From a virus, in IMG/VR virus record IMGVR_UViG_3300045999_007288, positions 1 to 64,000 of that record: DNA of 64,000 bases; one strand, written 5' to 3'. The stretch's first letter is position 1. The number at the start of each line of letters is the position of its first letter. Both the position numbers and the translations under genes were made by a program. The notes beneath the pieces are model-generated. The model was not told the DNA's origin, searched no databases, and was given only the letters and a program-made list of their open reading frames with translations. Shown one piece after another: positions 3,873 through 61,848 of the stretch.

Positions 3873-3901
3873 TTGTCCAAAAATCCCAATTTTGCTATAA
3901 T
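3873..3901 (+). promoter_or_regulatory. sigma70-like promoter (second copy of cassette)
   Basis: -35 TTGTCC (3873-3878), a 17-bp spacer and TATAAT (3896-3901). It drives the gene at 3935, which has its own purine-rich ribosome site (CGGAG). The region is nearly identical to the promoter at 3511-3539. Confidence 0.7.
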
Positions 3902-5897: not shown

Positions 5898-5926
5898 TTG
5901 ACAATAAATCCAATTTCAAATATAAT
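5898..5926 (+). promoter_or_regulatory. consensus sigma70 promoter
   Basis: A perfect TTGACA (5898-5903), 17-bp spacer and perfect TATAAT (5921-5926). It is followed by AAGGAG and the ATG at 5951 of the VWA protein. This is the best match to the host consensus on the left arm. Confidence 0.8.
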
Positions 5927-7540: not shown

Positions 7541-7547
7541 TTAAATA
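7541..7547 (+). promoter_or_regulatory. candidate late-type promoter element TTAAATA
   Basis: TTAAATATTGTTAGTG sits 24 bp before the ATG at 7571, with a GAAGG ribosome site between. It resembles the GATAAATATTATTAG before the gene at 2830 and the element in the hairpin loop at 9042. The match to the late consensus is imperfect. Confidence 0.3.
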
Positions 7548-7570
7548 TTGTTAGTGTATCGAAGGTATAT

Positions 7571-7867
7571 ATGAGTCACGAACAAGACAAGCTTAAGAAC
7601 AGTAAACGTAGGTTTGAAGATGACAATGCTGTAAAAAAACAGACTAGGATTGCTAAAGAGCATGGTGCTCCAGTTACAGAGCCACACCGATTGCATAAAA
7701 AACATGCTATGGATTGTGGTAACTCAGAATGTTATCTTTGCGGCAATCCTCGAAAAATACATAAAGATAAATTAACAATACAAGAAAAAAGATTTTATCA
7801 GGACACAGACAAAGTCACCGATAGGCATAGTAACGGAATTTCCCCAAATGAAACGAATGAAAATTGA
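7571..7867 (+). CDS. small zinc-knuckle-like phage protein
   Basis: A 98-residue, highly charged protein. The middle contains HRLHKKHAMDCGNSECYLCG, with His and Cys residues spaced as in a small metal-binding knuckle, followed by NPRK and a basic helix. I recall short proteins with this CGNxxCxLCGNPRK pattern from several T4-like phages; their role is not known to me. Nucleic-acid or protein binding is possible. Confidence 0.6.
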   Translation: MSHEQDKLKNSKRRFEDDNAVKKQTRIAKEHGAPVTEPHRLHKKHAMDCGNSECYLCGNPRKIHKDKLTIQEKRFYQDTDKVTDRHSNGISPNETNEN

Positions 7868-8995: not shown

Positions 8996-9024
8996 GCATA
9001 TTCCTACTTAGATCTAAAAATTTT

Positions 9025-9066
9025 CTCCGATGATATAACAGGTTAAATAACTTTATATCATCGGAG
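9025..9066 (+). promoter_or_regulatory. hairpin that sequesters the ribosome binding site of the gene at 9072
   Basis: A perfect 14-bp inverted repeat: CTCCGATGATATAA at 9025-9038 and its complement at 9053-9066, with a 14-base loop. The 3' arm ends in CGGAG, the ribosome site for the ATG at 9072. The loop contains GTTAAATA (9042-9049), similar to late promoter elements. A transcript starting near 9056 would lack the 5' arm and leave the site free, as in T4 genes whose early transcripts are translationally silent. The structure is seen; the regulation is inferred. Confidence 0.65.
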
Positions 9067-9071
9067 TAGTA

Positions 9072-9278
9072 ATGAGCACTGAATCTAAACAAGTTCAAGT
9101 TCCTTCTAAGGAACTTCTTACAATCTTATCTAGTATGCAATTGGCCAGCAGCCGTGGTGCATTTAGGCCTGAAGAATTTACAGAAATTGGATCCGCATAT
9201 CAAGCATTATATGCGTTTTTAGCTGATCTGAATGTTATTGCACCAGCGCCAGCCGCTACAGAAACCCCCAATCAATAA
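9072..9278 (+). CDS. small hypothetical protein under hairpin control
   Basis: A 68-residue protein of unknown function, with a helical core (ELLTILSSMQLASSRGAF) and a proline/alanine-rich tail. Its CGGAG ribosome site lies within a 14-bp stem, so it should be poorly translated from read-through transcripts and better from a promoter in the loop. That suggests it acts late in infection. Confidence 0.6.
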   Translation: MSTESKQVQVPSKELLTILSSMQLASSRGAFRPEEFTEIGSAYQALYAFLADLNVIAPAPAATETPNQ

Positions 9279-9287
9279 GGATTTATT

Positions 9288-9974
9288 ATGATTAAACATG
9301 TAGGTAAACACAGCAACAAAAGATGTGTTATTTTATTTAAAACCGTACCAGGAGAAGAGCATATGTGTTTAGTCATATATCCTGATACATTACCCCGCCA
9401 TATTCATGACGATGTAATGACTGCGCTGGAAAGCGATTCTGGACAACAAGCTAAAGAGTTCAGTGATTATCTATTCAGATACACACTACAGGATGGCAAT
9501 AACGCATTAGAAACTTTACACAAAGAAGGCATGATTAAAAAAGTGCCGACTAATCAAGTTATCGTTACACCAAATGCTAAAAGCACTGTAAGATTAGACG
9601 AACTTAATTCAATTTTATCAAAGTTGTCACAAGGTGAAGAAGCTGTCAAAGCATTAGCCGACTTAGACAAAAACTCGGGTATGATAAACAAACGCCGAGT
9701 GCGCGAAGGTTTAGAACCTGGCGAAGTGAGGGCCCCGCGCGAATCTCGCAGTACCCCTGCTCAGATTACAAATAACATAAGTATTAATGATGTGCTGTCA
9801 GACGAAGACCTTGCCACACAACGTCTAGCTCAAGCACAGAAGCTGCAATCGGACGCCAAAGCATTGTTAGCAGAAGCAGCTCGTTTGCAAGAAGAAGCAT
9901 TAAAACTTAACGGTCCCGCAGCAAAAAATGGCACAACAAAATCCAAAAAAACAGTCAAAGCCAAAGAAGCTTAA
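9288..9974 (+). CDS. conserved T4-like marine phage protein of unknown function
   Basis: A 228-residue protein. The first ~145 residues match a family I recall from cyanophages: GKHSNKRCVILFKTVPGEEH, PDTLPRHIHDDVM, LHKEGMIKKVP and VRLDELNSIL. The tail (about 165-228) is Ala/Gln/Glu/Lys-rich and probably a coiled coil followed by a basic disordered end. It has an AAGGA site. Function is unknown. The basic tail would permit nucleic-acid contact, which is only inference. Confidence 0.65.
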   Translation: MIKHVGKHSNKRCVILFKTVPGEEHMCLVIYPDTLPRHIHDDVMTALESDSGQQAKEFSDYLFRYTLQDGNNALETLHKEGMIKKVPTNQVIVTPNAKSTVRLDELNSILSKLSQGEEAVKALADLDKNSGMINKRRVREGLEPGEVRAPRESRSTPAQITNNISINDVLSDEDLATQRLAQAQKLQSDAKALLAEAARLQEEALKLNGPAAKNGTTKSKKTVKAKEA

Positions 9975-20292: not shown

Positions 20293-21393
20293 TTATTTAT
20301 TGAGCAAACTACTGCTGTAATCGTAACCAGGTTTTAATCTTTCAATTTGTTGATCATAGTAGTCCTTATCTGACCAAGTATAAGAATATACAGAGCTCAA
20401 AATGTTTCCTGACCCATCATCGCATTGAATCGAATATATGTCTAAATAACACGATAGTATCGGCCAAACTTCACTGTATTTGATCGTCCCAAAACTTCTT
20501 TGTAGATCAACTTGACCCACTGAATGGTATCCGAAGTTGTATTGATTGTCTTCGGGGTCGAATCCGTTTCGTTCGAGCCATGATTTAAACCCAGACATTT
20601 CTTTGGTGTACCAAGGATGCGGCCCATTATAACATACATCCTGTGCCCATTCGATGTCAAATTCCCCGCTATAGTAACGTAGATGTGTAATAGCATCACA
20701 GGTAGCCTTGTCAATGTCAATGCCTTTTTCGTCTCGATACACTTCATATAACGTTTTACCGATTTGTGTCCAATGCAGATATACTTCCCCAAATTTTCGA
20801 TCATATCTGGATTCGTCAAAAGTAGTTTTATGTATTGCTGGAAATTCGTATCGTGCGGCGTTCAAAAATGTAGTAATTTGACTAGGTCTGACCCATTCTG
20901 GTAATGTTACTTTTTTACGTTGACTTAACATTAAACTCTCTGCTTCATGACATAAATTATTCAATTGTCTAATAGCAAATTTAGTTGTATAATCTGCCCG
21001 TTTATAATAATCACTGAGTCCCCATACAGTTCCTTGTAAAATCTCAAAATGATTGTGCAATTTGTTCATTAAATCCTGATTAGGATTTAATGTTTTAGGA
21101 TCCCGTAGAGTAAAAGGGTAAAAGTTTTCTTCTATTTTATATTCATCCCGAAAGAAATCATTTATTACATTCTTAACCCAATATAGTTCTTTACAAATAT
21201 ATTCTAAATCTCTTTGACTGTCGGGGAATCCTAAAAAGCAAAAGTTCTTTTCTAGATATTTGTGTTGCTGTACGATTTCTTGTAGTGCTGTAAACCATTG
21301 CTGAGCCATTTCGTGCTCGTAGACATCGATAATATAATCTAATGTTTTTGTTTTATCTAACGGATTGCGTAGTGTTACTATTACTTTATTCAA
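20293..21393 (-). CDS. unknown protein between radical SAM and carbamoyltransferase genes
   Basis: A 366-residue soluble protein. It is rich in aromatic residues and has many Tyr/Trp in the last third (FGYHSVGQVDLQRSFG; YSYTWSDKDYYDQQIERLKP). I see no P-loop, Fe-S cysteines or DxD. It overlaps the preceding radical SAM gene by 8 bp and sits in the same operon, so a role in the same pathway is likely. It could be a partner or substrate-handling protein, but no function can be assigned. Confidence 0.6.
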   Translation of the reverse strand: MNKVIVTLRNPLDKTKTLDYIIDVYEHEMAQQWFTALQEIVQQHKYLEKNFCFLGFPDSQRDLEYICKELYWVKNVINDFFRDEYKIEENFYPFTLRDPKTLNPNQDLMNKLHNHFEILQGTVWGLSDYYKRADYTTKFAIRQLNNLCHEAESLMLSQRKKVTLPEWVRPSQITTFLNAARYEFPAIHKTTFDESRYDRKFGEVYLHWTQIGKTLYEVYRDEKGIDIDKATCDAITHLRYYSGEFDIEWAQDVCYNGPHPWYTKEMSGFKSWLERNGFDPEDNQYNFGYHSVGQVDLQRSFGTIKYSEVWPILSCYLDIYSIQCDDGSGNILSSVYSYTWSDKDYYDQQIERLKPGYDYSSSLLNK

Positions 21394-22675
21394 TTGAATT
21401 CCACCATTTTAATACTTCGGGTCTAGCTGAAAATATATCATGCATAGTATAGCTATCATTTCGAATTTGTTCAAGTTTTTCGATTCTTGCTTTTCCTTTA
21501 CGCAAGCCAAATTGATATCCATCGGGCCACTGTTCTTGAAATGTAGGTCTAGTTTTTAGCTGTACAAGTATATCCTTTAAGGCGCCGCCTACAGTGGGTA
21601 TAATTTCATCTATCCAAGGTTCTAATAGATCCCTGGGCAGTGATAAAGGTGACATAACTATGTCCGGGCTAAAACTAAAAATTACTTTCGCGAGAATATC
21701 GACTTTTTCTTCTTCTGCAAGTCGCTGGATACTAGCAACTTCGAACATGCCGGGCAAAGTGAGCGTAAAGTCAATTCGCATTTGACGTCGGTGACTAGCA
21801 ATTTTAGTTCCTTGACGGAAGTTCTCAAGCCATTCATTGTAGTTAAGGCCTGTTCTAATGTATTCGCCAATCGAGCCCGTGCCGTCGATGCTTGCACAAA
21901 TCTGCCAATCACGAAGCCTGCTGAGAATATCACTATAAAGATTGACACCTTTATAATTAATTCTTGATAAATTTGTATTATATCTAGCATAAACATTTGG
22001 CCCGTCTCCTAATTCTATAATCCTCTGCATGTAGCGCCAATGCTGTTCATACATAAGAGGTTCACCGCCAACCCAATATACTTCCTCTACGCGGTGTTCT
22101 TCGACGGCTTGACTAAACTCTGCCTCAATCTGTGTGTCTTGAAATTGTTCGATTTGTTTTTTGATTTCGGCTTGCATCCAATTATTCTTAGGATCATGCC
22201 AATTAACCATATTGTATTGACGTTGCTCGCTTTCCCATGCACTACTTAACATGTCTCCACACATGCGACATTTAAAATTACAAAGATTACTAAATCTGTA
22301 ATCCCAACTTACAGGCTTCATATCTGTCGAGCCGTCGGGCCGAGTCTTTTCCATCGCCTCATTGTACTTATTCCCAAACAAACTATTAAAATAACTACGG
22401 TAAACAGATGTGTTCAACAACTTATCATTACATACTTCACACTCGGGCAAAGTTTCTCCTGCTATCATACGGCGACGAACAGACTTCATATGTTCGCTGT
22501 TCCAATGTTCGTCCAACGTAACAGGTATATATTCTCCTGTGCCGTTAGTTGTGTCGATGTACTGTTTAAAATTCTGTGCGGGTTCGCGACTAGCGCAGCA
22601 TAATCTGCGTTCGGTCTGCGGACTTAAATATGTATGTGTCCAAGGGGCCATGCACAAAGTATCAGGTTTAATCAT
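21386..22675 (-). CDS. radical SAM protein with N-terminal twitch/SPASM-like cysteines
   Basis: A 429-residue radical SAM enzyme. The cluster motif CNFKCRMC binds the SAM-cleaving 4Fe-4S cluster and VGGEPL follows in the SAM site. Before the core, CMAPW (C8), CC near 26 and ECEVC near 80 are spaced like an auxiliary-cluster domain (twitch/SPASM type) placed N-terminally. Such enzymes do radical chemistry on peptides or sugars; the substrate is unknown. It is one of six in this operon and is of the CRxCG subtype, like the two upstream. It overlaps both neighbours by 8 bp. Confidence 0.85.
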   Translation of the reverse strand: MIKPDTLCMAPWTHTYLSPQTERRLCCASREPAQNFKQYIDTTNGTGEYIPVTLDEHWNSEHMKSVRRRMIAGETLPECEVCNDKLLNTSVYRSYFNSLFGNKYNEAMEKTRPDGSTDMKPVSWDYRFSNLCNFKCRMCGDMLSSAWESEQRQYNMVNWHDPKNNWMQAEIKKQIEQFQDTQIEAEFSQAVEEHRVEEVYWVGGEPLMYEQHWRYMQRIIELGDGPNVYARYNTNLSRINYKGVNLYSDILSRLRDWQICASIDGTGSIGEYIRTGLNYNEWLENFRQGTKIASHRRQMRIDFTLTLPGMFEVASIQRLAEEEKVDILAKVIFSFSPDIVMSPLSLPRDLLEPWIDEIIPTVGGALKDILVQLKTRPTFQEQWPDGYQFGLRKGKARIEKLEQIRNDSYTMHDIFSARPEVLKWWNSIE

Positions 22676-23873
22676 ATCCCATAGCCTTGGCTATTTCAGA
22701 GTGTGTATCCATAAAGTTCTGTTTTCTATATGTATCTGTGCGCTTCATATTGTTTATGAATACTTGCCCGTCACTGCCTGGGCCATTTTCGATAAATTTA
22801 ATTACATTCTCAATTTCTTGATGATGTTCTTTTGTATTCCAAAAAGTTGTTTTGAGTTTATTTAAAACTAATTCTCTGGCTGCGGGTGTTAATCGTTGAA
22901 TACTCATATGATCAGGGCTGTGTAACATATTAAAATAAATGCTGTCAAAAGGTTTGGTGCTTGCCCAAGCCAGTAACTCATCTAAGTAATATACATTTTG
23001 AATATTAATAGTGAAACAAAGTTGAGTAGTAATGTTAGGCGTGTCAACATCTCGTGCAAAATGAACTCCGTCGATTATTTCGTTGGCTTTATCCCAGTCT
23101 GCACCGTATCTTTCATATTCAAATCTCGCGCCAACATTGTCGATACTAAATGCAATATCTACACGACCGAAATGATTCCATAAATCTGATTTTTGTATGC
23201 CTAACCCGTTAATAGTTGCATTGGTATTATAATGAATATCAATATGTTTACTATGACCTGTAGCTACTGCATATCGCAGTAATTCCCAATGTTCTTCGAT
23301 TAACCAAGGTTCACCCCCAGTAAATTCAAAATACTTAATATTGGGCAGTAATGATTTTAAATTCTCCCAAAAATCAGGACTCTCTTCTGGCCACTTACCT
23401 TGTTTAAGCCAGGTATATGCAACATGTTTTTTCTTATCATGTCCTTGCGGCAAGTACTCTAATTCTTCTGCTGCCCACTTGCTACTGCTCCAGCTTCCAC
23501 ATATCCTGCACTTTAAATTACAAATGTTGCCTAGCTTTAAATCAATGAACCACAATTGATCAGGTACATCGTTTTGCCAATCAACCAATGGGTATAACTC
23601 CTTGAGTCTGACTTGGCTGTGAATACGTTTACTAGTCCTATTTGCTGCTTCCTCATCCCAGCATAATTTACAGGTATTTGGTTTTTCGCCGCGGCGGAAT
23701 TGTCTGCGTAAGTTTTGCATATACTCGCTGGTGTATGCATCTTGCAATGTATGTCTTCTAAGATCAATACCAGTAATATCTTCCCTTGCAAGACAACAAG
23801 GTCTTGCAGTACCCATGGGACTAGTCTCAATACTAATCCATGGCAGCATACAAATACTATTAGGTAGTGTCAT
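22668..23873 (-). CDS. radical SAM protein with N-terminal twitch/SPASM-like cysteines
   Basis: A 401-residue radical SAM enzyme. CNLKCRIC is followed by SSSKW and later FTGGEPW. N-terminal cysteines occur in ICMLPW, RPCC and NTCKLC. It is most like the copies on either side, pointing to gene duplication. The GGEPW variant differs from GGEPL in the other copies. Its end overlaps the next start by 8 bp. Substrate unknown. Confidence 0.85.
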   Translation of the reverse strand: MTLPNSICMLPWISIETSPMGTARPCCLAREDITGIDLRRHTLQDAYTSEYMQNLRRQFRRGEKPNTCKLCWDEEAANRTSKRIHSQVRLKELYPLVDWQNDVPDQLWFIDLKLGNICNLKCRICGSWSSSKWAAEELEYLPQGHDKKKHVAYTWLKQGKWPEESPDFWENLKSLLPNIKYFEFTGGEPWLIEEHWELLRYAVATGHSKHIDIHYNTNATINGLGIQKSDLWNHFGRVDIAFSIDNVGARFEYERYGADWDKANEIIDGVHFARDVDTPNITTQLCFTINIQNVYYLDELLAWASTKPFDSIYFNMLHSPDHMSIQRLTPAARELVLNKLKTTFWNTKEHHQEIENVIKFIENGPGSDGQVFINNMKRTDTYRKQNFMDTHSEIAKAMGYD

Positions 23874-25207
23874 TTATTTTTTAACTCGCTTAATTCAGAA
23901 AATGTATTCCAAAAGTTTTCTCCCCTGAGATTATCAATTAAATTAATTTCTTGTTTAAATTTATCCCAGTGCTGTGAGCCGTTGGTGGCCATTAGAAAAT
24001 TAATAGCACTCTTAAATCCAGTTGTTGCACGTTTTAATGGGTCTTGTGGTTCTAACCATTCAATATGACGCTCGTATGCTGGTTTAATTACTTGCTCTTT
24101 AAATTCTTGAGAGAATATGTCAACTCTATACCATTCGGGACTTTGGCAAATATTAACGTTAAAGTCCTTGGGTTTAATAAATCCTAAATCAACCCACTCC
24201 TTATGAAAATCCAATACGTGAAGAACGTTCATTGCACTAATAGTAGATGCTATATAAAAATCTACGTGCGGCACTTCTTCTAACATGCGTTCACGATTAC
24301 GAACTGTTTGTTTCCAGTCTGTGCCTTTTCTCATTAATTCTGCTCTAGTCCCGCTGGCATCCAGACTAGCACCTACACCCACTGTTCTAAAGTGTTTCCA
24401 GTATTCAAATACGTGTTTGTCTTTGAATGCTAATTCGCTAAAGTTTGTATTGTACTGGATACATACGTCTGTTCGACCGGCTTCAATGAGTTTTTCTAAT
24501 AGATAATAGTGTTCCTTCATAATCAAAGGTTCGCCGCCTGCAAAATAGACTTGTTCCAAGTAGGGAATATGTTCTTCCATTTGTGCAATCATATAATCTT
24601 CGTCACCGGCAGCATATTCAATTCTGGCCAAATCTTTGCCGTTTACGTCAGGCACTCTATTGAATAATTTGACATGATCATTATACCAGTTACTGCTAAA
24701 AACAGGGCCGCACGTTCTGCAACGAAAATTACACAGATTACTAAATCTAACGTCCCAATATCTAATCTTAAATTCTGGATGAGTTCCATCTGGCAATGTT
24801 TTATCTACGTCTGCAATGTTATGTCCGTAACTACGATTAGCGTCATAGCGCATACTAAAGAATCCGTTTTCTTCTTGTTCATAACATTTGGTGCATTGTT
24901 TGACTGGCTGATCTGCCATCATTAAACGTCTGATCTCTTTATATCCTTCTTGATTCCAAACTTCTTGCATTGAATTCTTTTTTAAATTCCCAATTGGATG
25001 AAAATATTCTGCAAAACAACAAGGATACACACGACCATCCGGGTACGCATGTTGATGAACCCAGGGCAACATACAAAATGACTTACTATTAGTTAATCTA
25101 CTGATCTGTGTTTCTGTAAGGGAGTTTGAATCTATAAACAGTGGCTTTCGACTATTGTAGTCATAGCCACGTTTATAAAATCTATCAGTTTTTTTGTCTT
25201 CGCTCAT
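23870..25207 (-). CDS. radical SAM protein with N-terminal twitch/SPASM-like cysteines
   Basis: A 445-residue radical SAM enzyme. CNFRCRTC and FAGGEPL mark the core; CMLPWVHQHAYPDGRVYPCC and QCTKCYEQEENG mark the N-terminal auxiliary cysteine domain, the clearest example of it here. An RYWDVRFSN stretch before the core is also in the copy at 21386 as SWDYRFSN. It overlaps its neighbours by 4 bp on both sides. Substrate unknown. Confidence 0.85.
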   Translation of the reverse strand: MSEDKKTDRFYKRGYDYNSRKPLFIDSNSLTETQISRLTNSKSFCMLPWVHQHAYPDGRVYPCCFAEYFHPIGNLKKNSMQEVWNQEGYKEIRRLMMADQPVKQCTKCYEQEENGFFSMRYDANRSYGHNIADVDKTLPDGTHPEFKIRYWDVRFSNLCNFRCRTCGPVFSSNWYNDHVKLFNRVPDVNGKDLARIEYAAGDEDYMIAQMEEHIPYLEQVYFAGGEPLIMKEHYYLLEKLIEAGRTDVCIQYNTNFSELAFKDKHVFEYWKHFRTVGVGASLDASGTRAELMRKGTDWKQTVRNRERMLEEVPHVDFYIASTISAMNVLHVLDFHKEWVDLGFIKPKDFNVNICQSPEWYRVDIFSQEFKEQVIKPAYERHIEWLEPQDPLKRATTGFKSAINFLMATNGSQHWDKFKQEINLIDNLRGENFWNTFSELSELKNK

Positions 25208-26553
25208 AGTGTATTATACCAATCTGCTAATGCAGGAAATGTTTTGCAGAAGTCTTTTCCTCTGCGTTGATCGTATTGTGTGTAAAATTGTTTAAAATCG
25301 TTTTGTAATTTTGGCAATTCAAAAGAATCGCTGTGGGGTGTCTTAACAACATCCAAATAATCTATTAGACGCAGTACATGATTTATTTCGTGCTCGTGTA
25401 AGTAGTTATGCCCTTTATGGCGAACAACAAAATCAATTAGCCGATTACGATATTTTGTTTTAATGTCGTCTGGCAATATCAATGGACTTTGAAAACTAGG
25501 GAAACGTAAAATGTTTAATGTAAAATTAGGAAAGTCTCTTCCAAAGTCTTTCTTTAAATTAACCATTGTATCTAAGAAATCGGGTAATGTGTCTAAACAC
25601 AATGCATTGATCGTACACATCACATGCAATCTATAAAACTTTTTACTTTGTGTAAGTTTTATAACATGTTCTAACCATAGATTATAATTCAGTCCATCGC
25701 GAATATATTCTGCTTGATCATATTCGCTTTCGTTGCTAGTATATAAATCTATTTCAAGTCCATCTACACTGTCAATTAGTCTATCTATATCAACTTGATA
25801 TCCTAAATTACTGTTGATAGCAAGTCGAGTTTTACTACGGCCTTTATTTGCTTTAAACCAATCTAATAATTTCCAAGTTTCTGCACTCATCAGAGGTTCT
25901 CCACCAGTAATGCGTAATTCGTCTAATGTTTTATGGAGATCGCTTTCCCACCATTTATGGAATGCTTCAACGTATGGATTAGATTCGCCAAATTTATAAA
26001 GTTGTGAACTATCATGGGTGTGCGTAAAGTGATTTCTACCATCACTAACAAGATTATTATAGGGCCCGTTACGTTTAATATCGTTGACCCATGTACTACT
26101 AAAAGCAGGATTACAATAACTACAAGCAAACTGACAAGTTCTATCAAACGCGATTTCAAGAGTTTTAAGATCGAAATCTTCTCGAGCTGGTGTTCTATAT
26201 GCGCGGGCCAAGTCTTCATCATTGTAAATCACAGTTTTGTATACACGATCACTTACTGCATCTCGGCCCATGTCTTCAATCTTCCAGCAATACTCACAAC
26301 CAGATGGACGCTCACCTTTTTGCATTTGTTCGCGTTCCATCTTTTTCTTTTGAGTATTGTGTAATGCCTTAGGATTGTTGATCACATCATCTATTTCGAC
26401 TTTATGAGGCAATGGATGATGACAGCTAGTGGTCATACCGCTGCCTAACCATATAGTAGCATTATACCACTTAGCTCCGCAAAAAGATTTTGATTTAATA
26501 TCGATTACTCTACGTTTGTAATCTAAGTCTGTTTCATTGTTTAGTCTTGGCAT
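25204..26553 (-). CDS. radical SAM protein, CxYC subtype
   Basis: A 449-residue radical SAM enzyme with CQFACSYC, SSTW and ITGGEPL. The N-terminal auxiliary region has FCGAKW, SCHHP in place of CC, and GCEYCWKIED, matching the copies at 27561 and 28690 rather than those downstream. The loss of the second Cys of the pair may change the auxiliary cluster. It overlaps the glycosyltransferase-like gene by 20 bp. Substrate unknown. Confidence 0.85.
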   Translation of the reverse strand: MPRLNNETDLDYKRRVIDIKSKSFCGAKWYNATIWLGSGMTTSCHHPLPHKVEIDDVINNPKALHNTQKKKMEREQMQKGERPSGCEYCWKIEDMGRDAVSDRVYKTVIYNDEDLARAYRTPAREDFDLKTLEIAFDRTCQFACSYCNPAFSSTWVNDIKRNGPYNNLVSDGRNHFTHTHDSSQLYKFGESNPYVEAFHKWWESDLHKTLDELRITGGEPLMSAETWKLLDWFKANKGRSKTRLAINSNLGYQVDIDRLIDSVDGLEIDLYTSNESEYDQAEYIRDGLNYNLWLEHVIKLTQSKKFYRLHVMCTINALCLDTLPDFLDTMVNLKKDFGRDFPNFTLNILRFPSFQSPLILPDDIKTKYRNRLIDFVVRHKGHNYLHEHEINHVLRLIDYLDVVKTPHSDSFELPKLQNDFKQFYTQYDQRRGKDFCKTFPALADWYNTL

Positions 26554-27574
26554 AGTTGTTAAATTTAGTTATAAAATCATTTATTAGTTGTTTATCCTCG
26601 CCGGGTGGTTGCGTGGATATCATTACATTCCTATTGTGTCTACAAATATCTTCGGCTTCATTTAAAAATTCTTCTAAATTAGAATTGCAAAGAAATTCTA
26701 TCACATCTACTATTCGATTTAATCGTTTATCGTTGTCGTCTATTAGATCAAACGATTCGTCTATTAGATGACCAAACGTTTTAAATCCTTGATTATGTAA
26801 ATCTTTATAGAATCCATAGTTTGCCGCTACTACAAATGGGTGTCCAATTTTAAGTGGCTTGTAAATTTTTTCTGTTCTGAAGCTATAGGGCAAATAAAAA
26901 TTTGTTTCTGTTACAACACTGAAATAAGAATCTTCAAAAATATTTGCAAATATTTGCCCGTCAGGCCAGTCGTTTAATTTATATTTTCCGTTTACTACAT
27001 TATCACTGTTGACTTGAAATTGGTAGTCTTTGGGCAAAAATTTATTGTCGTAGAGTGCAGACCATAAACTTCGTTCTAACAAATCTTTTTTATTTAATTT
27101 TTCTATCAGTAATGAACGATGAGATCTTTCTATCCCATTTAAAAAATTAAACAAAAAAGTTTTATTCCTTTTTAAAAAAATTTGATCAATTATCTTCGAA
27201 TCTCTTTGTTCGAGCTCAGTTGTTGTACGTCCTAAGATATACCTAAATATGTCTACTGTTATATGTGCTATATTCGAGGGCAAATCTCCCGACGACACGA
27301 TAAACGGTAGACGCACAAAATCATTCCATCCTAATGCGTTTAATGTATCTAATACTGTATTGGTACCTTCGTGTAGCATACTTAGTATAAACAAATTTTT
27401 GCTGTCCACAGAAATAATATTTTTTTTAATAATATTTCCTGTTAATAAAACAATACCATTGTCTGAAATTAAACTTTCTACTGTATCGTGCTCCACTACA
27501 TCAAAATAATCAGGATACCAATTAAAAAATTCTAAATTGTCGTTTTTTAACGAGTTAATTTTAATCTTTTGCAT
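26534..27574 (-). CDS. glycosyltransferase-like protein (fucosyltransferase/exostosin-like C-terminus)
   Basis: A 346-residue protein. The C-terminal part has SVVTETNFYLPYSF, then RTEKIYKPLKIGHPFVVAAN and GFKTFGHLIDES, the pattern of GT-B transferases such as fucosyltransferase- or exostosin-type proteins where a donor-binding loop and TEK-YK motif occur. The N-terminal part is not recognised. It is embedded between radical SAM genes with overlapping ends, so sugar transfer and radical chemistry probably act in one pathway. Donor and acceptor unknown. Confidence 0.6.
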   Translation of the reverse strand: MQKIKINSLKNDNLEFFNWYPDYFDVVEHDTVESLISDNGIVLLTGNIIKKNIISVDSKNLFILSMLHEGTNTVLDTLNALGWNDFVRLPFIVSSGDLPSNIAHITVDIFRYILGRTTTELEQRDSKIIDQIFLKRNKTFLFNFLNGIERSHRSLLIEKLNKKDLLERSLWSALYDNKFLPKDYQFQVNSDNVVNGKYKLNDWPDGQIFANIFEDSYFSVVTETNFYLPYSFRTEKIYKPLKIGHPFVVAANYGFYKDLHNQGFKTFGHLIDESFDLIDDNDKRLNRIVDVIEFLCNSNLEEFLNEAEDICRHNRNVMISTQPPGEDKQLINDFITKFNNYAKTKQ

Positions 27575-28706
27575 TTAAAAGATCCTTAACTTTGACAGGA
27601 AGAGTTATATTTTTTCTATCTTCCCATTGTTTTAAAAAATGTAAAAATTCTGAAAATAAAGTTTTATTAAATTTAGTTGAAGACAATATACTTAACACAA
27701 CATCAACATTCTTTATATTTTTATTATCTAACAACGTTAATAGCACAGTCTCTGCTTGTTTTTTAATGTTATCCGGAGTTGCTTCAATGCTTTGAATTCT
27801 GGGATGTTGACCATATGACAGTGCCCAATGAAAGTTATCTTTATATTTTTCTATTCTGGGCAGTATTACACCAGATGAAAAGTTTTCGATATCACAGAGA
27901 GTTAAATTAGTCATCAAACTCAATATATTAATTTTGATATTTTCTTCACTACGTTCTAATAGATAGTCCAAATTTTTCAAAAATAAATCATAATCAAGTC
28001 CATACCTAACAAATTCTGATATTTCCTTGCAAGAATCTAAACTGACATTTATTACAATGTATTTAAATTTATTTCTATTAGATAGTAGTTTATCAATTGA
28101 TGTTTTATCGACCATTAAATTTGAAGTTACATCTAAAATTCCTTTATGGTCTATTGTATCTAAGATATTAAAAAAATTTTTATTTATTAATGGCTCGCCA
28201 CCTATTATTCTCAAAGTTTCAAATTTTAGAGTGTTTAACAATTTTAAATTTTCGACCACTAATTGTTTATTTTTAATATCAACACTGTAGATATGTCGAT
28301 CTGTAAACAATTGATATTTTTGATTTTGTACGTCCTTTTCCCATTGACTGCTAAACTTTGGATTACAATATATGCATTGCATATTGCAAGCATTGCCAAC
28401 ATTAATTTCAATTACCTTAGGCGATTTATTATTTTTATATTCATCGAATGTTGATACTTCAAATTTTTCTAAAAACTGAGTTCTGAGGCTGGTGCCGTTT
28501 GTTTTTTCAGAATTCCAACAGTAAGAACAACTGGAATCTTGCACATTGTTTAATAAATTTTGTTTTTGATGATCGATAATTTTGTTGTAATCGTCGACAA
28601 ATTTTTCCGGTCTTGCTTTACAACAACCATACACATAATTATAACTAGTATTAATGACTAATTCGTCCCATTTAGCCGGACAAAAAGTGTTAGGTAGTTG
28701 TTGCAT
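27561..28706 (-). CDS. radical SAM protein, CxYC subtype
   Basis: A 381-residue radical SAM enzyme, the smallest copy. The core is CNMQCIYC with SSQW and IIGGEPL. The N-terminal cysteines are FCPAKW, GCC and SCSYCW. It is noticeably more AT-rich in codon choice (many Asn, Lys, Ile, AAA/AAT codons) than the others, as is the glycosyltransferase-like gene after it, so these two may have arrived together. It overlaps both neighbours. Substrate unknown. Confidence 0.85.
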   Translation of the reverse strand: MQQLPNTFCPAKWDELVINTSYNYVYGCCKARPEKFVDDYNKIIDHQKQNLLNNVQDSSCSYCWNSEKTNGTSLRTQFLEKFEVSTFDEYKNNKSPKVIEINVGNACNMQCIYCNPKFSSQWEKDVQNQKYQLFTDRHIYSVDIKNKQLVVENLKLLNTLKFETLRIIGGEPLINKNFFNILDTIDHKGILDVTSNLMVDKTSIDKLLSNRNKFKYIVINVSLDSCKEISEFVRYGLDYDLFLKNLDYLLERSEENIKINILSLMTNLTLCDIENFSSGVILPRIEKYKDNFHWALSYGQHPRIQSIEATPDNIKKQAETVLLTLLDNKNIKNVDVVLSILSSTKFNKTLFSEFLHFLKQWEDRKNITLPVKVKDLLNAKD

Positions 28707-30081
28707 AATATTTGCATTCCTTCCAAAAATCTACCATTTCTGGAAATGCCAAAATAAAGTTAGTGCCGCGGCGGCGATCATGTTCATTGAAAAATTTATA
28801 AAAATTTGCTTTTTGCATTTTAACATAATCAGGATCTAATTTGCTACCTTCTCTCATCCAATCAATGACTCTTTGTAAACGTTGAACTTCATAATCTTTG
28901 AAACCGTGAAACGGAGTCTCAGGTTGCTCCATTTTTGTAATCATAAAACTCCATGACATTTCTAAGTTATCTATATAACTTTCTGGTAATAGTTGTAAGC
29001 TTTGCCATTCTGGTTTACGAAGAATCGGAGTATCAAACCACACACGCTGATACGTTTTACTGTGTATTTGTCTGAGTCCTAATATACAACCTAGTAAATT
29101 TTGAAGGCCGGCCACATTTAAATTATTCATAGTAATTATAAATGTTAAACTACTACGATTGGGCACTTCATATAAAAATCTGTTGACGTTATCCCAAAAT
29201 CTTTCAAAATTTAATCCATGTCTGATATATTCGGCCTGTAGAAAAGTGGCATCTATACTAACATACTGCATGAAATGCTCAATTTTTTTATCTTCATTGC
29301 TGCACAATCGTTTCACATAATCTAAGTATTTTTCAAACAATGCAGGGTCAACGCTGAAATTAGAAGTCACATTTAAATGTAGTTTTGGATTAGGATTTTC
29401 CAATACATAATCAAATACACGATATGTATTCTTATCCATGAGAGGCTCTCCGCCAGTCATTCTGAAATGTTCCAATTCTGGATATAGCGTAGGCCACCAA
29501 GACCAGAACGCATCAACATAAGGATTATCTTCCCTTGCAGGAATAACTTTTCTTTCTCCAGTAAAATGACTGGGGTCGTTGTGCAGTGGGCTTGTGGGAA
29601 AAGCGCCATTACGTTCTACTTCACTGGCCCAACTACTAGAGTATTGGGGGCTGCAATAACTGCAAGATAAGTTGCAAGCATTATTGAAATTGACTTCTAC
29701 GTAGGAAGGAAGCACATCCTCGTCTCCAGTGGAATTAACTATTTTTTCAAAATCTTTTGTTGCCCACGGCTCTCCACTACGATAATGTCGATCGCTTAAA
29801 TTGCCCAAATCTTCTTGTGTCCAACAATAACTACATTCTTGTGGGCGCTCATTATGCAGCATAATCTTACGCTGTTCTTTTTTGTAAGGAGTGTTATGCA
29901 ATGCACCAGGATTATCTTTTAATAGTGTTGAATCTATTTTATGTAAAGGTGGGTGATAGCAACTGTTATTAAGTCCCGTCGGTAAATGTAAGCTAACTTG
30001 TTTCCATTTGGCCAAACAAAGTGCAGGACCTAATTTAGATTTTGCGTCTTCCGCAGAATTTAAAAATACGCTTTTAGACAT
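28690..30081 (-). CDS. radical SAM protein, CxYC subtype
   Basis: A 463-residue radical SAM enzyme. The ATG at 30081 overlaps the upstream stop as TAATG, better than the TTG at 30087. The core is CNLSCSYC with SSSW and MTGGEPL; the N-terminal cysteines are LCLAKW, SCYHP and ECSYCW. It is close to the copy at 25204, including the shared GALHNT/KALHNT block near residue 60. Substrate unknown. Confidence 0.85.
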   Translation of the reverse strand: MSKSVFLNSAEDAKSKLGPALCLAKWKQVSLHLPTGLNNSCYHPPLHKIDSTLLKDNPGALHNTPYKKEQRKIMLHNERPQECSYCWTQEDLGNLSDRHYRSGEPWATKDFEKIVNSTGDEDVLPSYVEVNFNNACNLSCSYCSPQYSSSWASEVERNGAFPTSPLHNDPSHFTGERKVIPAREDNPYVDAFWSWWPTLYPELEHFRMTGGEPLMDKNTYRVFDYVLENPNPKLHLNVTSNFSVDPALFEKYLDYVKRLCSNEDKKIEHFMQYVSIDATFLQAEYIRHGLNFERFWDNVNRFLYEVPNRSSLTFIITMNNLNVAGLQNLLGCILGLRQIHSKTYQRVWFDTPILRKPEWQSLQLLPESYIDNLEMSWSFMITKMEQPETPFHGFKDYEVQRLQRVIDWMREGSKLDPDYVKMQKANFYKFFNEHDRRRGTNFILAFPEMVDFWKECKYYATTT

Positions 30082-31007
30082 TACCAACCCTCAACTCGTC
30101 GAATAACATCTAGTTCAGTCATTGTTGTTCCCATGTTACGATGCACTGCTTTATAATGATGTTTAAAAAATGCACTCTGGTCTGGATTCATATCTACTAT
30201 CGGCAATCCCAATCGTGTACGCAATGTTTGTCCAATGTTTTCACAGGCAGGTTCTTCGTCTTTGCTAAAGCTGTTCCAAAGATATGCGAGATGGTCAAAA
30301 TCTTGCACTTGTTTATAATCCCAGTCCCTTAACATAGTCATGTACGTACCTAGCCGAGCACCGTATATAGCCCACCAACCATTTTCTACATCTTGCCCTA
30401 CGCTCTGCCAGATGCATAAATGATCGTAATTACGGGCATGAACTTTTTGTTCAAACTCTTGTAAGCTAGGTTTCTTACCACGATTCAAACACATTTTAAC
30501 GCCTTCACGAAAGCCTGCTCGCCAAGCTTGAAAAGGTGTTGCATTGGGAAAGGTAGTACTATAGCAATCATGCATGGGAATATACTTTGGATCAAAGCAA
30601 AACTCTACCACAGTCTCATCTCTGCCATCAGTGGCTTCGTGTGTTCGCATATTGTTGACGAACTCTTTGGTCCAGCAACTTATTCCGCCATTGCCGTACA
30701 TCAATCCATTGATATGATTACGAGCTTTCCACCTAAATACACAGTCGTGATTGTTATCATCAAATTTAAGTTGAAGATTAAAAAATTCAGCATCTGGTAT
30801 ATTGTCCCCATCTATTAGCACGAACCTATCAGTGTCACTGGCCGCAGCAGCGGCTTTGTGTGCAGCATCACTGCCTTTAATACCGTCCACATGTTTAGCC
30901 CACGGAATTAAATTTTGAATCTTAATCCAAAATTCTTCTTTTTTCGGTTCGTCGTAGGTTAAAAATATGCAATCGAGGTCAGCAATATCAACGATTTTTG
31001 TAGTCAT
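30081..31007 (-). CDS. glycosyltransferase-like protein
   Basis: A 308-residue protein. CIFLTYDEPKKEEFW opens the nucleotide-binding half, and FVLIDGDNIPD (about 62-72) is a DxD-type metal/sugar-nucleotide site, as in GT-A glycosyltransferases. ARNHINGLMYGNGG is shared with the last unit of the 556-residue protein at 14845. I recall this family in cyanophage genomes. It overlaps the gene upstream by 20 bp and the radical SAM gene downstream by TAATG. Confidence 0.65.
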   Translation of the reverse strand: MTTKIVDIADLDCIFLTYDEPKKEEFWIKIQNLIPWAKHVDGIKGSDAAHKAAAAASDTDRFVLIDGDNIPDAEFFNLQLKFDDNNHDCVFRWKARNHINGLMYGNGGISCWTKEFVNNMRTHEATDGRDETVVEFCFDPKYIPMHDCYSTTFPNATPFQAWRAGFREGVKMCLNRGKKPSLQEFEQKVHARNYDHLCIWQSVGQDVENGWWAIYGARLGTYMTMLRDWDYKQVQDFDHLAYLWNSFSKDEEPACENIGQTLRTRLGLPIVDMNPDQSAFFKHHYKAVHRNMGTTMTELDVIRRVEGW

Positions 31008-36021: not shown

Positions 36022-36029
36022 TATTTATA
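36022..36029 (-). promoter_or_regulatory. late promoter TATAAATA
   Basis: A perfect T4-type late promoter element on the minus strand, 22 bp before the ATG of the fiber gene at 36000. Expected to be used by polymerase carrying gp55. Confidence 0.8.
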
Positions 36030-50866: not shown

Positions 50867-53800
50867 TTAATTAATTATAGTATTTACCGTTAAATTTTGT
50901 ATGTTTAATTGTGCTGCGGTAATAGCACTAATAATTTCAATATTTTCTACTGTGGCACAGCTTATTAAAATTTCGTTAGGTTCGCTGTTGATCTGTTGTA
51001 ATGATCCATATGTTTGACTAGTACTGTTGGGCACAATAATAATACTACTGATGTTTGGCGCTAGACCTTGTTGGATATATGTTGCCAATTCAGTGAAATA
51101 AAATGTTTCTCCAAAATCCCAGTTACCCACTGCAAAAAATGCATTGATATACGCAAGTACTTGGCTTCGGATTTCGCTGTCAGTTAAGTTAATATTTGAA
51201 TTTTTAATAATTTTAAATGTAGCTTGAAGTTCAGGTCTGGCTTTATTGCCAAACAAAGGTTTAAACTCTGCTGCATTATAAATGATAGCATCGCTGACCG
51301 ATTTATAATTTTCTAAATCTCCGAATGCTAATTTTAGGCTTTCTCCTGTTTCTTTTTCAGGTTCCTGAACTGTTCCAGTAGTATCCAATACCCATGCTCG
51401 ATATTCTGTTTCATATTCTTTAGTTAGCACATACAAATCTATTAGATTACTTGGGCTTGGATCTATTCTTCTACTGCCAGGTGCATTATGTTTATATTGA
51501 AAATACAATGATGATCGACCAACTCTTGCAATATAATCATTGCTTTCAGTTAACGATCTTGTAGTAAGATCGATGGTTAAAACATAAAAAGTTTCTTCTT
51601 CGTATGCATAAAAAATCTGTCCTTCGATATAATTGTTAATATTTGGAATAACCTCAAGTCGATTTCCAACAATCACAACTGCGGACGAAGGAATAGGTGT
51701 GAACGTTACAAAGCTATTATACCCATAAGTTTTTTCAAAGAAAACAAACTTAGTAGGAGGATCATTGTTTACATCCGGCTGCACTACGGTATTGAAAATA
51801 TCCGGATCATCTGGAACTCCGTCATTGTTTATATCACTATACGTAACCAACACTTTACTAGCATCCACATACCCATCTGATTCTGCAATCTGATCGTATA
51901 TATACCAGAGTACATTTTCTGTTAGTGGTTGACCAGTGTCGGGATCTCCATTAACTTTTAAAATATTTACACTATCGTTAACTGTAAACCCAGTTATTGG
52001 ATCAAAAATCTTTATTCTATTATCAAAATAAAATTTTGTTTCTTGTGTGCTTTCAAAAATATAACTTAATCCCCTAATTTGCACTGTATAAATCGAATTT
52101 GAAACAGTGAAGCTCAATAGCCAACTTGCATCCAAATTTTGACCGCTAGTTGAACCTTGATAGATTTGACTAAACGGATCAGTCAAATTTAAATCTTGGG
52201 CACTAATAGTTTGCCAAGTTTGAGTGTTTTGATCATATCTGATACCAAATTCACTGTAGTTACTAATTAATCCTATAAGTTTAGAAACAAACTCTGTTGT
52301 AAAAGTATTACTAAATGTAGGTATTACAGTAATAGCTTGGGCATTGGACGGTAAATTTAAACTTAATTTAACTGGGCCTTCGCCATTACTTAAATTGCCT
52401 TGATTACCGTTGCCCACTAAATTTGTAATAGAAACATAAAGTAAAGGTTGTCCGTTTTGCGGTACTTGACCACTAGAAGGTAATGCTACTATTTCGTTGG
52501 CAGAGTTAAAATAATTGCCAGGACCAGGACTGAATACAATAATACAGCCTTCGGTCAAATATCTATTATTTCCCACCACACCTGTCCCTACAGCAACTTT
52601 ATTTCCTGAAGACGGAAAATCTAAGAAATATCCAGTACTACTGCCAGATCCTGCGGTGCTTCTATTCCAATATAAGTTAGTCAGAGAGAATCTATTAAAA
52701 TATTCATAATAAAAATGTTGCAGTGACTTACTTCTTATGCTAGGCAAAATTTGATTTTCGATGATTCTATTAATATCTGCTGTTGTTCCAAATGTAAAAC
52801 TAAAACTAGAATCAGCATCTTCTTTATATAAAATTCCGTCTTCTGAGAAAATATTAGTGCTGCTGTACCTGCCACTGGTATCAAATATATCTAAGTATCT
52901 ACTAATTCCGCTGCTAGTTCGATTAACAGCTTTTACTTTACTGATTGTGCTATAGTTTGCATAAGGGAAAGTATTATAATCTTCCCCAGTGACCATACGA
53001 TTTTGTGTATAGTATAATTGTGGTGCTTTGGTTTTAATTTCAGTGATGCTTTCCCTAGGAATAGCATTGGCCACTGTATATTTTAGACTGGCAACAATGG
53101 TTAATGTTTCCAATCTACCTGCACGACTAATATAAGGTATAGTCAGACGAATATTTGTCATTTCGTCTGGTGTAATTTTATAACTTAATCCAGTACTAGT
53201 TCTAAAATAAGTTATGAAACTGCCCACAGGGATAGCAGCAAAAGTTCCATCGCCGAATACTAAATCAATTTGATCTCCTGCCCTGGTGTTAACTTGATAA
53301 CTTTTTTGTGCTGCATTATTATTATAGATAATATTGACCCCGTTAACACTGGGAATTTGATTCCATGCTTGCCCTATGTTACCCAAACTGCCAATTTCGT
53401 ATAACCACACATCTGAATTATTAATGTTATCAAAATTGATACTGGCTAAATTATTAGGTAAGCTTTCAGGAAACCGGAATGTCTGTGTTTGCAAGTTTCC
53501 TTGTTTAAAATAAAAGAAAAATCCTGTGTTGTTGCTGGCATTACCTAAATTATCATTTTTGTAAATTACGTTAAGCGGGCGGCCTGGAGCCGGGGCTGCT
53601 TCATAAATGTAACTCTCGTCTACACTGGTGCCGCTGACTACTTCAAAATTTAAAGCTGCATTTTCAATTTGAGTGTTATATCCAAAAACTGGTAATGTTC
53701 CAGGTGGTAAGTTTATATTGTACTCTGCGTTTAATACTCCAGCAATAGTCTTGCTATTACTGGGTTTACCAACTTGCTGATTGGTTGGCAAGGCTGCGTT

Positions 53801-54280
53801 AATTATTGTAATAAATTGTTCGTACCAATTAACGTTTCCGTTATCGTTCCAATTTACAATAAGATTAGTAAGGTCGATGCCGTTGCTGTCTTGTAATCTT
53901 TCAGTGGTTTGTACACTATCGAATTTTATAAAACCATTGGCCGTTTGGTTACGTTTAGGTACATAGCTAATTAATTTAGCTAGTTTTAAAACACTGTCTC
54001 TACGTTCTGCTGTATCAATAAAATTTTCACGGGCATTTAAATCTGTGCGAAATGCAAGACTTTGCCCTAAAAATGCGATAAGGTCAATTAATGCTATGTA
54101 TTCACTGGATTCGATAAAATCGTTAAAATTTTCTGGATAGTATATGCGTAGATAATCCAACATTGTTTTACGCAAAGTTTGAAAATCATAACTCTGGAAA
54201 TCCGCGTTTCTGAAAGTTTCGTAAAGAATAGTCCAGTCTTGATTGACTAAAAGACTACTTTGTCTGGTTGTAAGTGCCAT
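50867..54280 (-). CDS. gp6: baseplate wedge protein gp6
   Basis: A 1137-residue protein whose first ~130 residues are clear gp6: LDYLRIYYPENFNDFIESSE then ALIDLIAFLGQSLAFRTDLN and AERRDSVLKLAKLISY. In T4, gp6 forms the baseplate's inner ring by joining wedges. It is much longer than T4 gp6 (660 residues), with extra beta-rich sequence in the middle and a gp6/J-like C-terminal part (LGNKARPELQATFKII-like context near 1040; INAFFAVGNWDFGETFYF). A late promoter variant and a GAGGACAGG site precede the start. Confidence 0.85.
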   Translation of the reverse strand: MALTTRQSSLLVNQDWTILYETFRNADFQSYDFQTLRKTMLDYLRIYYPENFNDFIESSEYIALIDLIAFLGQSLAFRTDLNARENFIDTAERRDSVLKLAKLISYVPKRNQTANGFIKFDSVQTTERLQDSNGIDLTNLIVNWNDNGNVNWYEQFITIINAALPTNQQVGKPSNSKTIAGVLNAEYNINLPPGTLPVFGYNTQIENAALNFEVVSGTSVDESYIYEAAPAPGRPLNVIYKNDNLGNASNNTGFFFYFKQGNLQTQTFRFPESLPNNLASINFDNINNSDVWLYEIGSLGNIGQAWNQIPSVNGVNIIYNNNAAQKSYQVNTRAGDQIDLVFGDGTFAAIPVGSFITYFRTSTGLSYKITPDEMTNIRLTIPYISRAGRLETLTIVASLKYTVANAIPRESITEIKTKAPQLYYTQNRMVTGEDYNTFPYANYSTISKVKAVNRTSSGISRYLDIFDTSGRYSSTNIFSEDGILYKEDADSSFSFTFGTTADINRIIENQILPSIRSKSLQHFYYEYFNRFSLTNLYWNRSTAGSGSSTGYFLDFPSSGNKVAVGTGVVGNNRYLTEGCIIVFSPGPGNYFNSANEIVALPSSGQVPQNGQPLLYVSITNLVGNGNQGNLSNGEGPVKLSLNLPSNAQAITVIPTFSNTFTTEFVSKLIGLISNYSEFGIRYDQNTQTWQTISAQDLNLTDPFSQIYQGSTSGQNLDASWLLSFTVSNSIYTVQIRGLSYIFESTQETKFYFDNRIKIFDPITGFTVNDSVNILKVNGDPDTGQPLTENVLWYIYDQIAESDGYVDASKVLVTYSDINNDGVPDDPDIFNTVVQPDVNNDPPTKFVFFEKTYGYNSFVTFTPIPSSAVVIVGNRLEVIPNINNYIEGQIFYAYEEETFYVLTIDLTTRSLTESNDYIARVGRSSLYFQYKHNAPGSRRIDPSPSNLIDLYVLTKEYETEYRAWVLDTTGTVQEPEKETGESLKLAFGDLENYKSVSDAIIYNAAEFKPLFGNKARPELQATFKIIKNSNINLTDSEIRSQVLAYINAFFAVGNWDFGETFYFTELATYIQQGLAPNISSIIIVPNSTSQTYGSLQQINSEPNEILISCATVENIEIISAITAAQLNIQNLTVNTIIN

Positions 54281-54298
54281 GCCTGTCCTCGTTTTATG

Positions 54299-54306
54299 TA
54301 TTTATT
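54299..54306 (-). promoter_or_regulatory. candidate late promoter AATAAATA
   Basis: CAATAAATAC on the minus strand, 19 bp before the gp6 ATG, with GAGGACAGG as the ribosome site in the leader. One base off the T4 consensus at its first position. Confidence 0.55.
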
Positions 54307-54325
54307 GAGAACAAAATATGGTATT

Positions 54326-54703
54326 TTAAAGCATTGAATTATTTTGAATCATTTGCTGATCAAACTGCACAGCCAATTTAGCAGTCTGATTTGTTTGGAT
54401 ATAAATCAGATCTAATTCTATTTGTAATCCTCTGTCATACTGAGTTACAATCACATTCTGGGCTGCAATCCTTGGATCGTTTGCAACAATACGTTTTATG
54501 TCCTGTATTATTGTAGTTTTACTTTCTTCATTTAGGGGTTCGAATAGCATATCCCATATTATAGTACCAAATTCGGGATTCATTAACTTTTCGCCTTTGC
54601 GAATGTTAAAATGATTTTGTAGATCTCGTTTGACTAATTCAAAATCAGTCAATCGAAATCTCTTGTTACTTTCTAATGTGCTGAATCCGTTGTATAATAC
54701 CAT
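54326..54703 (-). CDS. gp25: baseplate wedge protein gp25
   Basis: A 125-residue member of the gp25/GPW family, which in T4 helps hold the sheath's first ring to the baseplate. Seen are the family helix DFELVKRDLQNHFNIRKGEK, NPEFGTIIWDMLFEPLNEES with the conserved EPL, and the terminal beta strands. Length is that of T4 gp25 (132). It follows the gp5 stop by 8 bp. Confidence 0.9.
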   Translation of the reverse strand: MVLYNGFSTLESNKRFRLTDFELVKRDLQNHFNIRKGEKLMNPEFGTIIWDMLFEPLNEESKTTIIQDIKRIVANDPRIAAQNVIVTQYDRGLQIELDLIYIQTNQTAKLAVQFDQQMIQNNSML

Positions 54704-54711
54704 AACTATAT

Positions 54712-60939: not shown

Positions 60940-60966
60940 GCGCTAACCGTGAATTTAAAGGACAAA

Positions 60967-61848
60967 ATGAAATCAAACTACTTAAATAATAAAGATATTC
61001 TTAAAGAGATACACAAAAGCAAAAATTCATACTGCTCATTTATTAGCCCAGACGTTGCAGATTATGATATGATTCTGCCAGACGTTAAGAAAATTAACAA
61101 AAAAAATATCTTAGATGCTCGTAAGTTAAGAGCAGAAAGATTAAGTAAATTGGCACACGAAGCTGCCGTGGCAGCCACTGGAGAAAAGCAAAAAGCTGAT
61201 CAATTTGAAATCAAATATACTAAAATTCCCCAAACTGAAGTAGTCTTTCGAATTATGACATGGGAACACATACCACTAGATGACGTTAAAACTAAAAAAG
61301 CCAAAGACGCAGCCAAAGAATTATTCGACGACGAAGACGAAACTTCTCATACTGAATACGATGAAGATGATCCTAAACACAACAAATACGTTAAAGTTAA
61401 CTTCCCGCCGTTTTTTCATTACAAAGTAGATGAAGAAGGCAACCCTATTCTAGTAGGCAAAAGTCATTGGTCGGGAGAATTAGATACTGGTTCGTTTAAT
61501 AGAGATCACGGAGCAATGACTAACAAACTAGCTCACATGTTTATGAAACTGTGTGAACGTTATGCAACTAGAAGTAATTGGAGAGGTTATACTTATAACG
61601 ACGAAATGAGAAGTCAAGCCTTGCTACAGCTCAGCCAAATTGGACTTCAATTCGACGAATCGAAATCACAGAACCCTTTTGCTTATTATACTGCCGCTAT
61701 CACTAATAGCTTCACTCGTGTGCTAAACATCGAAAAACGCAATCAAAACTTACGTGACGACATTTTAGAAATGAACAATCTCAATCCAAGCTACACTAGA
61801 CAAGGATTGAGTTCTGGTGGAGGAGGCTCTAACTTTTACGATGAGTAA
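60967..61848 (+). CDS. gp55: late-transcription sigma factor gp55
   Basis: A 293-residue homologue of T4 gp55, which directs host RNA polymerase to TATAAATA-type late promoters. The N-terminus YLNNKDILKEIHKSKNSYC, and HMFMKLCERYATRSNWRGYTYNDEMRSQALLQL with NPFAYYTAAITNSFTRVLNI in the second half, are the conserved sigma-2-like parts. The ATG at 60967 has AAAGGA just before it; the GTG at 60949 is less likely. T4 gp55 is 185 residues; the extra length comes from a mid-region with an acidic run (DDEDETSHTEYDEDD). The virion operon's late promoters begin right beside it. Confidence 0.85.
   Translation: MKSNYLNNKDILKEIHKSKNSYCSFISPDVADYDMILPDVKKINKKNILDARKLRAERLSKLAHEAAVAATGEKQKADQFEIKYTKIPQTEVVFRIMTWEHIPLDDVKTKKAKDAAKELFDDEDETSHTEYDEDDPKHNKYVKVNFPPFFHYKVDEEGNPILVGKSHWSGELDTGSFNRDHGAMTNKLAHMFMKLCERYATRSNWRGYTYNDEMRSQALLQLSQIGLQFDESKSQNPFAYYTAAITNSFTRVLNIEKRNQNLRDDILEMNNLNPSYTRQGLSSGGGGSNFYDE

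What the first reader, a model, noticed from the sequence alone, without database searches (positions are those of the whole stretch)
9025..9072. Hairpin hides a ribosome site with a late-like promoter in its loop
A perfect 14-bp stem with a 14-base loop places CGGAG of the gene at 9072 in its 3' arm. GTTAAATA in the loop could start transcription near 9056, giving RNA that lacks the 5' arm. This is the logic T4 uses for genes such as e, soc and 49. Long early RNA would be silent, and late RNA would be translated.
Basis: partly seen in the sequence, partly recalled or inferred. Interest (0 to 1): 0.6.

Follow-up and report, generated by a model that had tools for sequence, protein, structure and literature searches.

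The report
Late promoter inside ribosome-site-masking hairpin
In an uncultured T4-related phage, a gene inside what looks like an early operon has its ribosome-binding site locked in an RNA hairpin whose loop holds a late promoter, so probably only the shorter late RNA is translated; relatives conserve this through matched base changes, and the trick is already known from phage T4.

Summary
The hairpin is real and more than chance: perfect 14-bp stem (9025-9038/9053-9066), GGAG in the 3' arm, TAAATA in the loop, ATG at 9072. Its start site is the most occluded of 61 predicted starts in the window. The phage encodes a gp55-type late sigma factor. TAAATA lies upstream of 7 of 12 virion genes against 4 of 52 others. 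A perfect sigma-70 promoter 3.1 kb upstream on the same strand could supply read-through RNA. Of 94 distinct leaders of the homologous gene, 88 have TAAATA within 48 nt of the start. In 76 leaders with a Shine-Dalgarno site, cutting the RNA back to the predicted late start eases opening of the start region by 6.5 kcal/mol on average, against 2.6 in shuffles. Close relatives show compensatory changes in the stem. T4 e, 49 and I-TevII behave alike in the same calculation. It is a widely conserved new member of a known kind. One related branch appears to use other means at the same gene: a leaderless start (TAAATA-N5-ATG), often behind an intrinsic terminator. The two controlled proteins have no known function.

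The parts
9025..9038 (+). 5' arm of the hairpin, CTCCGATGATATAA; absent from the predicted late RNA
   Evidence: covariation
9039..9052 (+). loop CAGGTTAAATAACT
9044..9049 (+). TAAATA, predicted late-promoter core, inside the loop
   Evidence: in 88 of 94 homologous leaders and upstream of 7/12 virion genes
9055..9057 (+). predicted start of late RNA
   Evidence: inferred from T4 late-promoter spacing; not measured
9053..9066 (+). 3' arm TTATATCATCGGAG, which contains the Shine-Dalgarno site
9063..9066 (+). Shine-Dalgarno GGAG
9072..9278 (+). 68-aa gene under control; predicted two-helix protein of unknown function
9288..9974 (+). 228-aa gene downstream (phrog_15894, unknown function), probably on the same late RNA
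5898..5926 (+). candidate early promoter TTGACA-N17-TATAAT (12/12) upstream of the gene at 5951; possible source of long RNA over 9072
60949..61848 (+). gp55-type sigma factor for late transcription
   Evidence: phrog_12791 E 1.3e-76
36022..36027 (-). TAAATA (part of TATAAATA) 27 nt upstream of a virion-region gene; example of the phage's late-promoter motif. Others lie upstream of starts 34335, 50858, 54280, 54703 and 60855

Best explanation
A cis-acting timing switch of the T4 gene e / I-TevII type. Long RNA from sigma-70-like promoters upstream forms the 14-bp hairpin, which buries the Shine-Dalgarno site of the gene at 9072, so the 68-aa protein is hardly made early. Later, RNA polymerase with the phage's gp55-type sigma factor starts at TAAATA in the loop; this RNA begins near 9055, lacks the 5' arm and is translated. 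Shown: the hairpin, its conservation with compensatory changes, the late-promoter motif in this phage, and the predicted loss of masking. Inferred: early read-through, the late start in the loop, the effect on translation, and that the 228-aa gene downstream follows.
For: Perfect 14-bp stem over the SD, z -4.5. Opening energy of SD-to-AUG 15.6 kcal/mol in long RNA and 2.7 in late RNA. In 13 close leaders 7 of 14 pairs change on both sides, covariation 0.325 vs 0.146 shuffled (0/500) and at most 0.10 in slid registers. TAAATA in 88/94 leaders. Over 76 SD leaders the long-minus-late difference is 6.5 vs 2.6 (sd 0.23) in shuffles. gp55 homolog. TAAATA at 7/12 virion genes vs 4/52 others. Sigma-70 consensus 12/12 at 5898-5926. 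T4 positive controls e 17.1/4.2, 49 12.1/2.8, I-TevII 13.1/0.4; mechanism documented in T4 (PMC3014915).
Against: No transcript or protein data. The promoter matches T4's TATAAATA at only 6 of 8 positions. About 29% of the SD leaders in relatives do not reach a 4 kcal/mol difference, some of them near relatives (L013, L014, L047), and 25% of shuffled leaders do reach it. Read-through from 5898 over 3.1 kb is assumed. The leaders are related, so the counts are not independent.
Confidence: 0.82

Rival explanations
1. The hairpin is a general translational control element (binding site of a regulator, thermosensor or ligand sensor) that acts on every RNA of the gene, and the TAAATA in its loop is incidental.
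For: An SD-masking hairpin alone would look the same in the window; the loop and upstream A/T tract are conserved in close relatives.
Against: TAAATA is the most constant feature (88/94 leaders), is also found at virion genes, and is kept where the masking helix has quite different sequences. No Rfam match. The loop sequence outside TAAATA is not conserved across clades.
Confidence: 0.09
2. The inverted repeat is a DNA operator for a protein that controls the late promoter; RNA pairing is a by-product.
For: A perfect palindrome flanks the promoter core.
Against: One position is U-G in 7 of 13 leaders, which is a pair in RNA but a mismatch in a DNA palindrome; the stem sequence changes freely as long as pairing is kept; the 3' arm stays anchored on the SD.
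Confidence: 0.05
3. Chance inverted repeat without function.
For: 25% of shuffled leaders also reach a 4 kcal/mol long-minus-late difference.
Against: z -4.5, compensatory changes, and a mean effect far above shuffles over 76 leaders.
Confidence: 0.02

Closest known systems
T4 I-TevII and I-TevI leaders (RBS-sequestering hairpin in early/middle RNA, late promoter inside it; PMC3014915, PMC2988022)
   Same: For I-TevII, computed here, the late promoter lies in the loop and the SD in the 3' arm; opening energies long/late 13.1/0.4 vs 15.6/2.7 here. Also near thymidylate synthase in the case of I-TevI.
   Different: Controls homing endonucleases in introns, not a conserved two-gene cassette; sequence unrelated; mechanism shown by experiment for I-TevI, only predicted here.
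T4 gene e (lysozyme) leader
   Same: Long early RNA masks the SD, late promoters remove the 5' side (PMC3014915 section 29); 17.1/4.2 here.
   Different: Two late promoters, overlapping the hairpin differently; lysis gene; about 100-fold effect measured in T4, none measured here.
T4 soc and gene 49 leaders
   Same: Same logic; 49 gives 12.1/2.8 and soc 8.3/5.9.
   Different: In both, the helix lies just downstream of the TAAATA, as in relatives L041 and L186, rather than around it.
Aeromonas phage Aeh1 mobE hairpin (PMC3014915, PMC2988022)
   Same: RNA hairpin that sequesters the ribosome-binding site in a T4-related phage.
   Different: Homing endonuclease gene; not compared by sequence here.

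Membership tests
T4-type late-promoter-in-RBS-hairpin switch | Shine-Dalgarno site paired in a stable hairpin of the long RNA | tested here: met
   14/14 pairs, opening 15.6 kcal/mol, z -4.5
T4-type late-promoter-in-RBS-hairpin switch | Late promoter placed so that late RNA lacks the 5' arm | tested here: met
   TAAATA in the loop; predicted start 9055-9057; opening falls to 2.7 kcal/mol. Sequence level only
T4-type late-promoter-in-RBS-hairpin switch | Phage uses a gp55-type late sigma factor | tested here: met
   window 60949-61848, phrog_12791 E 1.3e-76
T4-type late-promoter-in-RBS-hairpin switch | Promoter matches the late consensus | tested here: inconclusive
   GTTAAATA matches T4 TATAAATA at 6 of 8, but the core TAAATA is what virion genes of this phage share (7/12 vs 4/52)
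T4-type late-promoter-in-RBS-hairpin switch | Pairing kept by selection in relatives | tested here: met
   7/14 pairs with changes on both sides, 0/500 shuffles reach the score; 76 leaders
T4-type late-promoter-in-RBS-hairpin switch | Early or middle RNA reads into the gene from upstream | tested here: inconclusive
   Candidate sigma-70 promoter at 5898-5926 on the same strand, only weak terminator-like sites between; no RNA data
T4-type late-promoter-in-RBS-hairpin switch | Mapped late 5' end and measured rise in translation | not testable with these tools
   needs infection RNA and reporters
T4 late transcription (gp55-gp33-gp45) | gp33 and gp45 present | not tested
   record holds only 74 kb of a larger genome

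The most novel reading that the evidence does not exclude
At one conserved gene a phage family has kept strictly late expression but exchanged the means: an SD-masking hairpin holding the late promoter, rebuilt with new sequences and geometries; a leaderless late mRNA (TAAATA-N5-ATG) that leaves early RNA no Shine-Dalgarno site; or an intrinsic terminator just upstream. This would show strong selection for late-only expression of a small protein of unknown function.
Probability: 0.5. Interest if true: 0.62.

Novelty: new member of a known kind. Interest (0 to 1): 0.5.

Why it matters
It extends a switch known from a few T4 genes to a family of uncultured phages distantly related to jumbo phages, with comparative evidence (compensatory changes, 94 leaders) rather than one example. 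It marks an unknown two-gene cassette near thymidylate synthase as probably late-only, which is a lead to its function, and gives a simple sequence signature for finding such switches.

Tried and rejected
Intrinsic terminator: no U-run after the 3' arm. Rfam: no match. Repeated element: the only second match in the genome is the hairpin's own reverse complement. Isolated phages: no DNA match; distant homologs of the 228-aa protein only, in RaK2, Phosso, XaC1, Vibrio 2.275.O and others, and those four leaders lack the hairpin. Function of the 228-aa protein: PDB sequence and fold searches found nothing significant, viral fold matches are unnamed or uncharacterised. A base-by-base test of 5'-arm against SD variants over all clades was inconclusive because the arms cannot be put in one register. 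My first control set of other TAAATA genes was contaminated with members of the same family, so I collected leaders by position instead. The RaK2 virion mass-spectrometry list is in a supplement that could not be read.

Full report
Observation. The hairpin is exactly as described: 14/14 paired stem 9025-9038/9053-9066, 14-base loop with GTTAAATA, GGAG in the 3' arm, ATG at 9072. It is more stable than shuffles (z -4.5), and its start region is the hardest to open of 61 predicted starts in the window (17.7 kcal/mol, mean 4.9, sd 2.95).

The phage. The window is 64 kb of a 74-kb IMG/VR virus record. It encodes a gp55-type late sigma factor (phrog_12791, E 1.3e-76), a baseplate wedge protein and an SbcD-like (gp47-type) nuclease subunit. 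TAAATA lies 10-48 nt upstream of 7 of 12 virion genes but only 4 of 52 others (Fisher p 3e-4), with 0.02 expected per region; I take it as the phage's late-promoter core. A perfect sigma-70 promoter (12/12, spacer 17) lies at 5898-5926 on the same strand, with weaker ones at 3873 and 4367, and only weak terminator-like sites lie between them and 9072. A long early RNA over 9072 is therefore plausible but not shown.

Relatives. From I collected by position the leaders of the small gene in front of the 228-aa homolog. There are 94 distinct leaders, and 88 have TAAATA within 48 nt of the start. In 13 leaders close to the window, 7 of 14 stem pairs show changes on both sides; the covariation score is 0.325 against 0.146 in shuffles (0/500), and sliding the register gives at most 0.10. 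An unsupervised consensus fold finds the same lower stem. U-G pairs at one position in 7 of 13 leaders favour RNA over a DNA palindrome.

Mechanism test. For each leader I computed the energy needed to open SD-to-AUG in the long RNA and in an RNA starting 6 nt after TAAATA (T4 spacing, my own knowledge). Over 76 leaders with an SD the means are 9.2 and 2.7 kcal/mol. The difference of 6.5 compares with 2.6 (sd 0.23) when the 5' part and spacer are shuffled; 71% of leaders reach a difference of 4, against 25% of shuffled ones. The leaders are related, so these are not 76 independent tests. The window leader gives 15.6/2.7. As a yardstick T4 e gives 17.1/4.2, 49 gives 12.1/2.8, I-TevII 13.1/0.4 and soc 8.3/5.9. 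Five other TAAATA genes in the window open easily in long RNA (1.6-3.8); one baseplate gene has a weaker masking hairpin (8.9/2.0). In T4 the switch is documented for e, soc, 49 and I-TevI (PMC3014915 section 29; also PMC2988022).

Other arrangements. Masking recurs with unrelated sequences, for example L138 TAATCCTCG/CGAGGATTA, L139 TCCTCG/CGAGGA and L147 CCTCTTT/AAAGAGG, and with the 5' arm just after TAAATA (L186, L041). In one part of the tree 12 leaders have TAAATA, five bases, then ATG, which with T4 spacing means leaderless RNA; L146 is similar with seven bases. A terminator search found intrinsic terminators in 7 of these 13 leaders, and in L019 and RaK2, but in none of the 54 masked leaders. 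These share ancestry, so the contrast is suggestive only.

What is controlled. The 68-aa protein is predicted to be two helices. The 228-aa protein has an N-terminal domain and a long C-terminal helix with no relative of known function. The order small ORF, 228-aa homolog, thymidylate synthase is kept in RaK2 and XaC1. Whether either protein is in the virion is unknown.

Verdict. It is a new member of a known kind of switch; the transcript start, early read-through and translational effect are inferred.

Noticed in passing
L136, L140-L144, L231-L233, L237-L239 (leader of the small gene): TAAATA-N5-ATG: with T4 spacing the late RNA would start at the A of the start codon (leaderless); several have an intrinsic terminator directly upstream.
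   Followed up: partly
window 54703-54714 (-): The same TAAATA-N5-ATG arrangement in front of the 125-aa virion-region gene 54326-54703 of this phage, so leaderless late RNA may occur here too.
   Followed up: no
window 54282-54315 (-): A second, weaker hairpin (9 pairs) with TAAATA in its loop and the SD GAGG in its 3' arm, in front of the baseplate wedge gene 50867-54280; opening 8.9 vs 2.0 kcal/mol.
   Followed up: partly
window 7542-7571 (+): TAAATA 29 nt before the 98-aa gene at 7571, in the same early-looking operon; kept in L008, and a homolog in L056 has TAAATA-N5-ATG. Possibly another embedded late gene.
   Followed up: partly
window 9016-9024 and homologous leaders: An A-run followed by a T-run and often CC, just upstream of the 5' arm and about 20-25 nt before TAAATA, is conserved even where the stem differs; role unknown, not seen at the other late promoters of the window.
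   Followed up: no
window 21386-30087 (-): A run of large proteins that look by eye like radical-SAM enzymes, beside glycosyltransferase-like and carbamoyltransferase-like proteins; an unusual number for a phage. Not searched.
   Followed up: no
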